This document shows, piece after piece, positions 12,513 to 49,770 of a stretch of DNA of 51,582 bases. Under the pieces are notes generated by a model. That model was not told the DNA's origin. It saw only the letters and a list, made by a program, of their open reading frames with translations, and made no database searches. The DNA lies in assembly GCA_011389575.1 (NCBI GenBank), contig JAABUB010000016.1:1-51582 (forward strand), read 5' to 3'. Source of the DNA: Desulfotignum sp. (GTDB lineage Bacteria; Desulfobacterota; Desulfobacteria; Desulfobacterales; Desulfobacteraceae). How positions within the stretch are numbered: the stretch's first letter is position 1; every line of letters starts with the position of its first letter. The translations under genes and the position numbers were made by a program.

Positions 12513-12548
12513 AAAAAAACAGGACCATCACACGTAACCACATCCTGT
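12513..12548 (-). terminator. Intrinsic terminator on the minus strand behind structured element copy B
   Basis: ACAGGA (12543-12548) and TCCTGT (12519-12524) enclose an 18-nt loop and run into seven T on the minus strand (12513-12519). No minus-strand gene lies between here and the terminator at 13084, so the transcript it ends is most simply the structured element itself. On the plus strand there is no T run. Confidence 0.6.
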
Positions 12549-12566
12549 TCAGCTGCTTGATACCCC

Positions 12567-12632
12567 CCTGCGGGTGCCGTTTGACCGGCCCGAGATTGGC
12601 ATCTGAGAGTCCAGTCACACGGCACCTTCAGG
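12567..12632 (-). ncRNA. Structured RNA-like element, copy B
   Basis: Read on the minus strand, GGTGCCGTGTGAC (12614-12626) pairs with GTCAAACGGCACC (12573-12585) with one mismatch. A CCTG/CAGG helix lies below it across a 2x2 internal loop. The 28-nt apical part (12586-12613) contains TCAGAT and CCAATCTCGGGCCG. It matches copy A near 49 kb at 25 of 28 bases, while the stems differ by compensated changes. It fills a 274-base gap without a gene. An intrinsic terminator follows on the same strand. I do not recognise the family. Read on the other strand it would instead be a leader of the gene at 12768. Confidence 0.65.
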
Positions 12633-12767
12633 AAGCTATGGCAATATAGGTAACGTTGCATTTACATGCGATTACTCTGCCAAAAATGACCGCCGGCATT
12701 GACAAACCTTTGGATCTCTGGGATATAGAACCATTTTACAATACCCATACAAAAGGGGGGAAACCGC

Positions 12768-13052
12768 GTGACCGGCGTAAGTGAAATTCTGGTTCTGATC
12801 CTGTTGATATCCGGTATGCTTATTCTGCCAAGAATGCTTAAACCGGCACCACCCAAAAAAGACACAGACACTCTTGCGCCCCTGTCCAAAAAAAAACGTG
12901 CCGCCATTGTAGCTTCCATTTTGTATCCCATTGCCTGTGCCATGATTATCAAACCCTGGAACGGACAACTGGTGCTGTTTGCAGCCACAGGCCCTGCCCC
13001 GGTGGCCCTGGCCTGGGCAGTTTACTGGGTTTTGTCAGCCCCCAAAAAATAA
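12768..13052 (+). CDS. Small two-helix membrane protein of unknown function
   Basis: The 94-residue product starts at a GTG preceded by AAAAGGGGGG. It has a hydrophobic helix at about 5-22, a basic linker (PPKKDTDTLAPLSKKKRAA), and two hydrophobic stretches at about 45-60 and 66-88. I do not recognise a family. It stands alone between structured element copy B and the terminator shared with the qrc operon. Confidence 0.7.
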   Translation: MTGVSEILVLILLISGMLILPRMLKPAPPKKDTDTLAPLSKKKRAAIVASILYPIACAMIIKPWNGQLVLFAATGPAPVALAWAVYWVLSAPKK

Positions 13053-26662: not shown

Positions 26663-26738
26663 GGGCCGTTAGCTCAATTGGTAGAGCAACTGACTCTTAA
26701 TCAGTAGGTCCAAGGTTCGATCCCTTGACGGCCCACCA
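26663..26738 (+). tRNA. tRNA-Lys (anticodon CTT)
   Basis: The 76-nt gene folds as a cloverleaf: acceptor GGGCCGT/ACGGCCC, D arm with AGCTCAATTGGTAGAGCA, anticodon arm ACTGA-CTCTTAA-TCAGT with CTT reading AAG, and a T arm with GGTTCGATCC. The CCA end is encoded (26736-26738). It has its own promoter and terminator. Confidence 0.97.
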
Positions 26739-46218: not shown

Positions 46219-48828
46219 TTACACCACTATGTTTACAAGAATCTGTTTTTTGCGCACGAGAATTATTTTTTTCACTGGTTTGTCCTGAATATGTTTTGCC
46301 ACCTTGTCATCTGCCAGGGCGGATTCTTTAATAGCATTTTCCGGGGCATCCGGTGTCACACTGAATCTGGACCGCAGTTTGCCGTTCACCTGCACCACCA
46401 CCAGCACTTCATCTGTTTCAAGGCTGTCTTTGCGAAAGATGGGCCAGGACTGTTCCAGAATGGATCCCTGATGGCCCATTTTTTCGAACAACTCCTCACA
46501 AAAATGCGGAACAAAAGGACTGAGCAGCAGCACCATGTTTTCCATTGCTGACAATACCACGGCCTGCATCTGGTTGTCTGCCGTATCCAGGTCCACCGCA
46601 TATACAGCATTCACCAGCTCCATAACCGCTGACACAGCCGTGTTAAAATGAAAACTTTCATCAATATCTGCTGTTACCTTCTGTATGGTCTGATGGATTT
46701 TGATATACAGGGATCTGGCTGCCTGGTTTTTAAGGTCAGCCGCGGGTCCGGTGAAGGGAAATACCTGCTGCTTATCAATTTTGTGCATACATTCCAGGGC
46801 CAGGCGCCAGACCCTGTTGATAAAGCGGCTGCTTCCCTCAACACCCTCTTCACTCCATTCCAGATCCCTTTCCGGAGGCGCTGCAAACAGACAGAAAAGC
46901 CGGGTGACGTCTGCCCCGTATTTTTCCAGAAGGTCATTGGGGTCCACCACGTTCTTTTTGGACTTGGACATTTTAATGACCCGGCCGATGGCAACTTCCT
47001 TGCCGCATCGGGTGCAGACAAATGTATCGTTGGCTTCTTTTCTGGCCTGCTCCGGATACAGGTATCCATGCTCCGGGCAGGTCATGGTTTCTTTGCACAC
47101 CATTCCCTGGGTGAGCAGCCGGGTAAATGGTTCTTTAAAATCAATCATGTTAAAATGGTGCAGCACCCGCATAAAATACCGGGAATACAAAAGATGCAGC
47201 ACAGCATGTTCCACTCCGCCGATATACTGGTCCACCGGTGCCCAGTATTTTACGGCCTGATGATCAAACATGCCTTTGTCAAACCGGGGAGAGCAGTACC
47301 GCAGATAATACCAGGATGATTCCACAAAGGTATCCATGGTATCGGTATCCCGTCTGGCATCTTTGCTGCCGCACGCAGGACAGACTGTATGCGTGAAATA
47401 ATCCAGGACAGGCAGCGGGGAACCGCCTTTTTCCAGCAGATTGGCATCTTCAGGTAGTTCTATGGGAAGGTCTTCTTCCGGCACCGGCACCACCCCGCAG
47501 TCCGGGCAGTGAATAACCGGAATGGGGGTCCCCCAGTAGCGCTGGCGGGAAATCCCCCAGTCCCGGAGCCGATAGGAGACAGCTTTTTTTCCCCTGCCCT
47601 GCTCTGCCAGCCAGTCTGTGATGGCTTCAATGGCTTTTCCGCTGTCCATGCCGTCAAACCGGCCGGAATTTACCATGACCCCGGGTCCGGTATAGGCGGT
47701 TTCCATGGTATCCGGATCAAGGGTATCGGATTCCGGCTGCACCACCACCCGAATCTCAAGGCCATATTTTTTTGCAAAGTCAAAATCCCGCTGGTCTCCG
47801 GCGGGCACCGACATGATGGCGCCAGTGCCGTACCCCATGAGAACGAAATTGGCCGTATAGATGGGGATTTGCTCTCCTGTGGCTGGATTGATGCAGTATC
47901 TGCCGGTGAAAACCCCTTCTTTTTCATATTTTTCCAGACCTTCCAGGGACCGTTCCTGGGCAGCCACTTTTTCAAGAAAGCCGGCCACATCCTTTTCTTG
48001 TTGTGTTCCTTTGCATAAAGTTTCCACCAGGGGATGCTCCGGTGCCAGACACATGAAAGTAGCCCCGAAAATGGTATCCGGACGGGTGGTAAATACCTTG
48101 ATCTGCGCATCCATGCCGGCAACCTGAAATGTCAGTTCAGAGCCCACGCTTTTGCCGATCCAGTTTTTCTGCATCACCGTTACCTTTTCCGGCCATCCCG
48201 GCAGTTTATCACAATAGACCAGCAGATCTTCAGCAAAATCCGTGATCCGGAAAAACCACTGCCACAGCTTTTTCTGATGCACCGGCCGGGAGCACCGCCA
48301 GCATTTGTCCTGTTCCACCTGTTCATTGGCCAGAACGGTCTGGCATTTTTCACACCAGTTGACAAAAGATTCCTTGCGGTATGCCATGCCGTTTTCCAGC
48401 ATTTTTAAAAACAGCCATTGCTCCCATTTATAATACTCAGGCCGGCAGGTGGCTATCTCCCGGTCCCAGTCATAGGAAAATCCCATTTTTTTCAACTGAG
48501 CGCGCATGGCCCGGATATTCTCATATGTCCAGGCAGCCGGGTGGGTGTTGTTGTCTATGGCTGCATTTTCCGCGGGCATGCCAAACGCGTCCCATCCCAT
48601 GGGATGGAGGACGTTAAACCCCTGCATCCGTTTGTACCGCACCACCACATCACCGATGGTATAATTGCGCACATGACCGATATGAATTTTACCTGACGGA
48701 TAGGGAAACATTTCCAGCAGATAATATTTTTCTTTTGCAGGGTCTTCGAAAACCTTGAAAATGTTATGGTCCTGCCAATATGCCTGCCATTTGGGTTCCA
48801 CATCAGCAGGATTGTACCGTTCCTCCAT
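46219..48828 (-). CDS. leuS: Leucyl-tRNA synthetase
   Basis: The 869-residue enzyme attaches leucine to tRNA-Leu. The HIGH motif is in [15 protein letters not shown] near residue 43, the KMSKS motif in [13 protein letters not shown] near residue 620, and the CP1 editing domain lies between, with TTRPDTIFG and [16 protein letters not shown]. An upstream GTG at 48858 has no ribosome site, whereas the ATG at 48828 follows AAAGGAA. The leader on this strand would include structured element copy A if transcription starts near 49090. Confidence 0.96.
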
Positions 48829-48941
48829 TCTGTCTTTTCCTTTCACAAGCAGCTTCACAATAATTTTTGATTATTAAAACCTATTAGATGCCACAACCAA
48901 AGGCAAATAGCAAGACAACAATTATTGAATTGGATCTTTGC

Positions 48942-48947
48942 TATAAT
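48942..48947 (+). promoter_or_regulatory. Extended -10 promoter upstream of structured element copy A
   Basis: TGCTATAAT is a perfect extended -10, with no good -35. A transcript from it would start near 48954 and enter element copy A about 14 bases later. Confidence 0.5.
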
Positions 48948-48967
48948 GGATGGTGTAATCATAAGAA

Positions 48968-49078
48968 CCGCGGCAGGGAGCCCCTGGAGGTGTGCTGTGA
49001 CAGGACTGTCAGATACCAATCTCGGGCCGGTCACAGCACACCTCCAGGTGCGGGGCTTGGGACCAGGACATGCCGTGG
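48968..49078 (+). ncRNA. Structured RNA-like element, copy A
   Basis: CCTGGAGGTGTGCTGTGAC (48983-49001) pairs perfectly over 19 bp with 49030-49048. Outside lie an AGCC/GGCT helix (48979-48982 with 49054-49057, leaving a 3'-side bulge) and CCGCGGCA/TGCCGTGG (48968-48975 with 49071-49078; 7 of 8 pairs). The apical 28 nt (49002-49029) include TCAGAT and CCAATCTCGGGCCG, matching copy B at 25 of 28. It lies between divergent leuS and rpsF, upstream of the rpsF promoter. An extended -10 stands just before it. I do not recognise a known RNA family. The opposite strand cannot be excluded. Apart from the promoters and the rpsF leader, the rest of this 440-base gap shows nothing. Confidence 0.65.
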
Positions 49079-49146
49079 ACAAATGAAAACCTGATACACT
49101 TATGGCAAATATCCAGTGCTGACAATTTTTGCTGCCAATTTTGAAC

Positions 49147-49269: not shown

Positions 49270-49770
49270 ATGAGAAAGTATGAAACCGTAGTGATTTCTG
49301 ACCCTGATCTGCAGGATCAAACACGCACTGAGCTGTTTGATAAAATCAGAAATATCATTGCCAGAGAAAACGGTATTTTTCTGAATCTTGATGACTGGGG
49401 CAGCAAAAAAATGGCCTATGAAATCAGAAAAAAATTACGGGGACACTATGCCTGCCTGACCTATGGCGGTACAGGAGACCTTGTAAAGGAACTTGAAAGA
49501 AATCTGCGCCTTACCGATAATGTCATGAAATTTATGACTATCCTCATCTCTGACGCTGTGACAGCTGAATCATTGGCTCAGGAACTAAAAGATGCCGAAG
49601 ATGCAAAAACGGCTGCCGCTGATGCTGCCCGGGCTGCTGATACCGTAAAAGACACTGACACGGACACTGATGCCGGCGCCACACAGGTGGTTCAAGAATC
49701 CGGATCAGATGAACCAGGGGCTGAAACAGCATCAAAAACTGCTGAAACAGTTACTGACGACAAGAACTGA
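49270..49770 (+). CDS. rpsF: 30S ribosomal protein S6 with a long C-terminal tail
   Basis: The 166-residue product begins [14 protein letters not shown], the S6 start, and continues with [21 protein letters not shown], which contacts S18. The conserved domain ends at about residue 100. A tail of about 65 residues rich in Ala, Asp, Thr and Glu follows ([19 protein letters not shown]) and is probably disordered. S6 and S18 bind 16S rRNA as a pair. The ATG has AAGGAG five bases upstream; a longer frame is not used. It heads rpsF-rpsR-DUF2232-rplI. Confidence 0.95.

What the first reader, a model, noticed from the sequence alone, without database searches (positions are those of the whole stretch)
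48968..49078. A structured RNA-like element occurs twice with a conserved loop and covarying stem
Copy A (here, plus strand) and copy B (12567-12632, minus strand) share an apical 28 nt at 25 positions, including CCAATCTCGGGCCG. The stem arms differ (GGTGTGCTGTGAC versus GGTGCCGTGTGAC) yet each pairs with its own partner; several pairs change together (T-A to C-G, G-C to C-G, C-G to G-C). That pattern favours selection on RNA structure over simple repeat copying. Copy A is preceded by a TGCTATAAT promoter. I do not recognise it as a known riboswitch, ribozyme or sRNA. On the opposite strand it would sit in the leuS leader, and copy B in the leader of the gene at 12768.
Basis: partly seen in the sequence, partly recalled or inferred. 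Interest (0 to 1): 0.8.

Follow-up and report, generated by a model that had tools for sequence, protein, structure and literature searches.

The report
Two mobile-element families share one hairpin
The two look-alike hairpins are copies of small non-coding jumping-DNA elements scattered through Desulfotignum genomes; the paired stem is real, but the copies belong to two different element families that oddly carry the same hairpin core.

Summary
In detail: two hairpins share a 28-nt apex and have covarying stems; no Rfam family reaches its gathering score there. They are not a pair. The hairpin is the core of two dispersed, non-coding, MITE-like elements, found only in Desulfotignum in what was searched: own genome and 12 of 12 same-genus genomes, 0 of 85 others. 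In the stretches fetched from the window's genome 60 places carry the core, A and B included. Copy A is a 187-bp 'class L' element (ends CTGGATATTTGCYATA; 7-8 bp target duplications across the class); copy B a 160-bp 'class S' element (ends CAGGGYAATCGCATGT; 10 bp duplications). The copy B site is empty in three relatives, the copy A site in one. The 'TGCTATAAT promoter' overlaps class L's terminal repeat. Covariation is genuine, but orthologous copies show blocks of stem swapping, with half-swapped arms: copying between arms or copies can explain part of it without RNA selection. A leader role is not supported. The unusual part is that two transposition systems share one structured core. No autonomous parent was found.

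The parts
48930..49116 (+). Copy A: class L MITE-like element, 187 bp, lacking the ~90-nt extra apical arm that most class L copies carry
   Evidence: Terminal repeats by pattern and caller; site empty in G002; no clear target duplication at this copy
48930..48945 (+).
49101..49116 (-). Right terminal inverted repeat, exact CTGGATATTTGCCATA
48983..49048 (+). Hairpin core of copy A; conserved apex 49002-49029
12520..12679 (-). Copy B: class S MITE-like element, 160 bp
   Evidence: Terminal repeats by caller; site empty in G005, G001 and G006
12664..12679 (-). Left terminal repeat of copy B, CAGAGTAATCGCATGT
12520..12535 (+). Right terminal repeat of copy B, CAGGACCATCACACGT (degenerate)
12565..12632 (-). 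Hairpin core of copy B, stem with some mismatches
46219..48858 (-). leuS (named from its sequence by eye), divergent neighbour of copy A
49270..49770 (+). rpsF (named from its sequence by eye; one search lists the frame from an earlier TTG, this is its ATG), divergent neighbour of copy A

Best explanation
Copies A and B are non-autonomous, MITE-like transposable elements of Desulfotignum. Shown: two classes with different terminal repeats and different target-duplication lengths (class L 7-8 bp, class S 10 bp), dispersed mostly outside predicted genes, polymorphic between species. Inferred: each class is moved in trans by its own transposase, probably of the DDE type, acting on the terminal repeats. 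Both classes carry the same internal hairpin, with a conserved bulged apex (GGACCGTCAGA...TCTCGGGCC) on a freely varying stem. Inferred: the stem stays paired because arms are re-copied from each other by replication template switching or from other copies by conversion, plus removal of badly paired copies; the apex is kept because something recognises the folded strand, or simply because of recent spread. Class L left ends resemble an extended -10 promoter, so the hairpin may be transcribed; untested.
For: Dispersed copies. Sharp target-duplication peaks: class S identity 0.557 at exactly 10 bp against 0.257 shuffled (z 10.6, n=30); class L z 5.9 at 7 bp and 4.4 at 8 bp (n=22). That set holds some orthologous copies; in the window's genome alone class S gives z 8.6 at 10 bp (n=16), class L z 6.3 at 7 bp and 4.5 at 8 bp (n=18), 0 of 2000 shuffles as high. 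Empty sites: copy B absent in G005, G001, G006; copy A absent in G002; L025 absent in G006 and G007. Terminal repeats against backwards-pattern control: 28+37 against 2+2. Found in the genus only. Block swaps and mosaics at orthologous sites; template switching as a source of multi-base compensation is published (PMC8794818, abstract and outline seen). Chimeric elements: L123 has an L left half and an S right half where the own genome has adjacent L and S elements; L030 is a further L/S chimera. Outside predicted ORFs in 47 of 60 places (2 of these at a stretch edge), against 952 of 4000 random points; the 13 inside are in ORFs of at most 504 nt (crude ORF caller).
Against: No autonomous parent or transposase with these ends was found: end pairs were looked for by eye in the listed matches of the window's genome (the list was cut at 100 of 123), of five relatives for class L and of five for class S. 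The three pairs of insertion-sequence size that I looked into enclose ordinary genes (73 and 84; 85, 87 and 88). Copy A has no recognisable duplication and copy B only a decayed one. Five core copies have no inverted repeat in their flanks (L010, L011, L012, L033, L037).
Confidence: 0.85

Rival explanations
1. The hairpin is a selected RNA, cis or trans, carried by mobile elements: the stem covaries because the transcript must fold, as reported for the RNAs of ERIC and Correia elements.
For: Strong covariation with all slide controls far lower; conserved apex; class C copies change an apical pair C-G to T-A (GGACTG/CAGGCC; by eye); more G.T than A.C mismatches on the core strand, 45 against 25, p=0.02; extended -10-like left end in class L.
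Against: The G.T excess is small and not corrected for relatedness (29 copies with G.T, 22 with A.C). No orientation preference relative to unidirectional genes, 11 against 12. At the copy A site orientation is not conserved. Block swaps can produce covariation without RNA selection.
Confidence: 0.15
2. The core is a REP-like element moved by a RAYT (Y1) transposase and inserted into other palindromes.
For: Hairpin with a GGAG or GTAG-like 5' foot in some copies; Y1 genes exist in the genome; REP dimers inside longer palindromes are described (PMC3733652, passages seen).
Against: 0 of the 14 Y1/RAYT loci examined (of 22 Y1 matches in five genomes) have a core nearby at E<0.1; one weak match had E=0.37. 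The core is ~80 bp with a ~20-bp stem; REPs are given as 20-40 bp (PMC3733652 abstract). Core-only copies are not shown to move alone: the L066 'empty' site in G010 looks like a deletion; the L068 site holds longer elements in G004, G006 and G007, with class L right ends in G004 and G007.
Confidence: 0.05
3. Leader, attenuator or terminator hairpins of the adjacent genes.
For: Copies lie mostly outside predicted genes.
Against: No T-run after the stems of A or B (by eye); no orientation bias; sites empty in relatives.
Confidence: 0.03

Closest known systems
Correia/NEMIS elements of Neisseria (MITEs)
   Same: Short elements with terminal repeats, short and long forms differing by an internal insert, promoter-like sequences, transcripts that can fold (passages of PMC2229807)
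   Different: Here a separate internal hairpin is shared by two classes with different ends and duplication lengths; no sequence comparison with Correia elements was made
ERIC/IRU and QMITE-type MITEs
   Same: Dispersed non-coding elements with stable folded transcripts (passages of PMC2229807 and PMC10969869)
   Different: Those are described as folding end to end; here apex and stem form a distinct core that two element classes share; no sequence comparison was made
REP/REPIN/BIME with RAYT
   Same: Conserved hairpin, many copies, published cases of REP dimers nested in longer palindromes (passages of PMC3733652)
   Different: Longer hairpin, no adjacent RAYT in the loci examined, true terminal repeats and target duplications

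Membership tests
[quoted passage not shown]
[quoted passage not shown]
   Class S 10 bp, z 10.6 (n=30) and 8.6 own genome only (n=16); class L 7-8 bp, z 5.9/4.4 (n=22) and 6.3/4.5 own genome only (n=18); not recognisable at copy A
[quoted passage not shown]
   Lengths 48-282 bp; 60 places with a core in fetched own-genome stretches
[quoted passage not shown]
   Copy B, copy A and L025 sites
[quoted passage not shown]
   None found; draft assemblies often lose insertion sequences
REP/REPIN | 20-40 bp palindrome with an unpaired GTAG or CGTC tag at one end | tested here: not met
   Core about 80 bp; CGTC lies inside the apex, not at the foot; definition from PMC3733652
REP/REPIN | Linked RAYT transposase | tested here: not met
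   0 of 14 examined Y1/RAYT loci with a core at E<0.1; 14 of 22 Y1 matches in five genomes examined
Known Rfam RNA family | Match above gathering score | tested here: not met
   permissive scans gave only sub-threshold matches at the hairpin or none
Cis-regulatory leader RNA | Conserved position and orientation at homologous genes | tested here: not met
Functional transcribed RNA | Transcription from a defined strand | not testable with these tools
   No RNA-seq available

The most novel reading that the evidence does not exclude
The hairpin is a portable, structure-conserved module adopted by two unrelated transposition systems (different ends, 7-8 against 10 bp duplications) because the folded strand gives both an advantage, for example a single-stranded DNA or RNA structure bound by a shared host factor; its stem is renewed by arm-to-arm copying while its apex is under selection.
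Probability: 0.25. Interest if true: 0.6.

Novelty: new variant of a known kind. Interest (0 to 1): 0.38.

Why it matters
It warns that covariation in a multi-copy hairpin is not proof of RNA function, and supplies a natural set of orthologous and paralogous stems, with mosaic intermediates, in which template switching and point compensation could be told apart. If the shared core proves functional, it would be a structural module used by two separate transposition systems. No paper on these elements was found in the held library (searches; most subscription journals are not held). Passages seen of the one Desulfotignum genome paper (PMC4046663) count 120 transposable elements in D. phosphitoxidans and do not mention such elements.

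Tried and rejected
Riboswitch, ribozyme or known sRNA: no Rfam match above gathering at the element; weak sub-threshold hits (E about 0.01-1), all microRNA models but one (DUF3800-IV RNA, E 0.42), are what a long perfect stem gives; copy B gave none. REP/RAYT. Core-only mobility: the L066 site in G010 looks like a deletion; the L068 site is empty in G005 and G001 but holds longer elements in three relatives; L012 (absent in G005) and L037 (absent in G004) lack flanking bases too, so these losses are imprecise; L033 and L064 were inconclusive and L062 is filled in G005. So independent movement of the core was dropped. Autonomous parents: a 2.7-kb class L pair in G006, a 1.9-kb imperfect class L pair in G011 and a 1-kb imperfect class S pair in the own genome enclose ordinary genes; exact single ends in G008 and G011 had no partner in the fetched stretch, and the one in G010 belongs to an element of about 265 bp. 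Streptomyces pattern hit L114: no model match, taken as chance; the Desulfotignum locus L134 also had none. Viral contigs: 0 pattern matches; plasmids: no match to one class L copy. The first strand-asymmetry count counted many copies twice and was replaced, which kept 91 of 96 distinct arm pairs. Literature: one search returned nothing, nothing useful; some searches gave the papers cited.

Full report
What was claimed and what is there. The two hairpins exist as described and fold significantly. A BLAST search with copy A against the window's own genome (3.56 Mb in 163 contigs) gave 58 matches at E<=1, itself and both halves of long copies included, so this is a dispersed repeat and not a pair. 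I fetched stretches around the places and aligned them. In those stretches 60 places carry the core, 40 with a short and 20 with a long apex, copies A and B included, no two of them identical stretches.

Two element classes. The alignments show conserved sequence beyond the hairpin, of two kinds. Class S (copy B) is mostly 160-168 bp and runs from CAGGGYAATCGCATGT to its imperfect inverse. Class L (copy A) is mostly 261-282 bp and runs from CTGRATATTTGCYATA to its inverse (lengths); most class L copies have an extra ~90-nt arm in the apex, which copy A lacks. The end patterns occur far more often than their backwards controls: class L 28+37 against 2+2 at up to 2 mismatches, class S 62+61 against 1+7 at up to 3.

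Mobility. A systematic caller over the window, own-genome and named-MAG loci found 30 class S and 22 class L elements with both ends. Flanking identity peaks at exactly 10 bp for class S (0.557 against 0.257 shuffled, z 10.6) and at 7-8 bp for class L (z 5.9 and 4.4); the next highest z is 2.7, at 9 bp, in both classes. Some of these copies are orthologous and so not independent; with the window's genome alone the peaks stay: class S z 8.6 at 10 bp (n=16), class L z 6.3 at 7 bp and 4.5 at 8 bp (n=18), 0 of 2000 shuffles as high. Perfect examples are L025 (GTATAAAATA), L042 (TGCTTAAA), L026 (TTGCCGGT) and L045 (TTCCCACC). Copy A's own flanks show no duplication. For copy B the empty site in relatives reads TGTCAAAAATGACC and the filled site has a decayed second copy of it.

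Empty sites. Joined-flank queries over 13 own sites against 12 same-genus genomes gave continuous hits, aligned: copy B in G005, G001 and G006 (in G006 the left flank matches only over its last 45 bases), copy A in G002, L025 in G006 and G007, L068 in G005 and G001; L045 in G002 was seen only. At the copy A site (between leuS and rpsF, genes named by eye) G006 has a class L element in the same orientation, G004 and G007 have one inverted, and G005 has an unrelated short palindrome. Other genomes gave one-sided or broken hits and are not counted either way; L026 and L042 gave no clear result.

Where it occurs. A covariance model from 28 own-genome short cores found the core at E<=1e-4 in 13 of 98 genomes: the own genome and 12 of 12 same-genus genomes, none of 85 in other genera of the family and order (stricter filters were used). 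Copy numbers vary: 14 to 42 matches in six of the 12 and 1 to 6 in the other six, both strands counted. A pattern scan of the named genome collection gave 50 stretches, 49 of them Desulfotignum or Desulfobacteraceae MAGs and one Streptomyces; 48 of the 50 matched the model, not L134 and not the Streptomyces one. Viral contigs gave none, and plasmids none for one class L copy.

The stem. On A1 (28 sequences) 97.8% of cells pair, 17 of 31 pairs change on both sides, and no shuffle of 500 reached any of the five measures; sliding the partner by 1-3 columns collapses the signal. None of the apical pairs (columns 30-41) changes on both sides in A1; class C copies (cores without recognisable ends and with a slightly different apex) do show one such change, C-G to T-A, by eye. 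Cells changed on both sides (90) far outnumber cells changed on one side (16, my sum over the table). Orthologous sites show how this arises: at one site the stem has GGTAGCGGTG with a largely matching right arm in the own genome and GGTGCCGTG in both arms in two relatives; L113 and L153 have arms of different types at sites where the ortholog's arms match or nearly match; L018 and its orthologs show single compensated pairs and some uncompensated ones. Among 90 distinct short arm pairs, 5 have the TAGCGG type on both arms, 6 the TGCCG type on both, and 3 are TGCCG left with TAGCGG right, none the other way round. Multi-base compensation by replication template switching is described in PMC8794818 (abstract and outline seen). 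So covariation is real but is not by itself proof of selection on RNA.

Recombination. L123 has an L left half and an S right half at a site where the own genome has adjacent L and S elements, most simply a deletion through the shared core. L030 is another L/S chimera; L052 has an L left end and a degenerate S-like right end. Elements without a full core exist: a 48-bp class L palindrome with a perfect 8-bp duplication (L045), a 101-bp class L copy (L043) and five class S copies of 92-106 bp. This suggests, but does not prove, that the core is not needed for movement.

RNA or DNA. Between unidirectional genes the core lies on the gene strand in 11 and on the opposite strand in 12 of 23 cases (crude ORF caller). 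G.T exceeds A.C mismatches on the core strand, 45 against 25 (p 0.02, uncorrected for relatedness; 29 and 22 copies). That is weak evidence for function of one strand, as RNA or as single-stranded DNA.

Core-only copies and REPs. Five cores have no inverted repeat in their flanks (L010, L011, L012, L033, L037), and more lack recognisable ends by eye. I first took them for an independently mobile unit; one search did not bear this out. Y1/RAYT genes exist, but none of the 14 such loci examined, of 22 matches, has a core nearby at E<0.1.

Parent element. No pair of ends enclosing a transposase was found by eye in the listed matches of the window's genome, of five relatives for class L or of five for class S. 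Three pairs of insertion-sequence size enclose ordinary genes, named by eye: an aminopeptidase-like and a permease-like gene, a methyltransferase-like and an L-aspartate-oxidase-like gene, and small heat-shock-like genes. These are mostly draft genomes, so absence is weak.

Verdict. Ordinary in kind (MITE-like elements), with an uncommon twist: two classes with different ends and duplication lengths share one structured core whose stem turns over rapidly yet stays paired.

Noticed in passing
L045 right flank; L066 left flank; G011:C1:1693809-1694015: Another palindromic repeat of about 200 bp, unrelated to the core, with dozens of copies across Desulfotignum, including genomes where class S and L elements are rare; no Rfam match.
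   Followed up: partly
L176 (G005:C149), the copy A site: An unrelated short palindrome (ttggggtcagaagttaac ... gttaacttctgacccca) sits in the leuS-rpsF gap, so this gap looks like an insertion hotspot.
   Followed up: no
L014:3993-4335: Two class S elements back to back, 11 bases apart, the second beginning just after the first one's duplicated target.
   Followed up: no
L060:1192-1863: A RAYT-like Y1 gene beside two small genes resembling a nucleotidyltransferase/HEPN-type toxin-antitoxin pair, named by eye.
   Followed up: no
L196:204-311: A likely S-left/L-right chimera of about 108 bp in G004.
   Followed up: no
window 26663-26735: A tRNA gene, the only Rfam gathering-level match in the window.
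   Followed up: no
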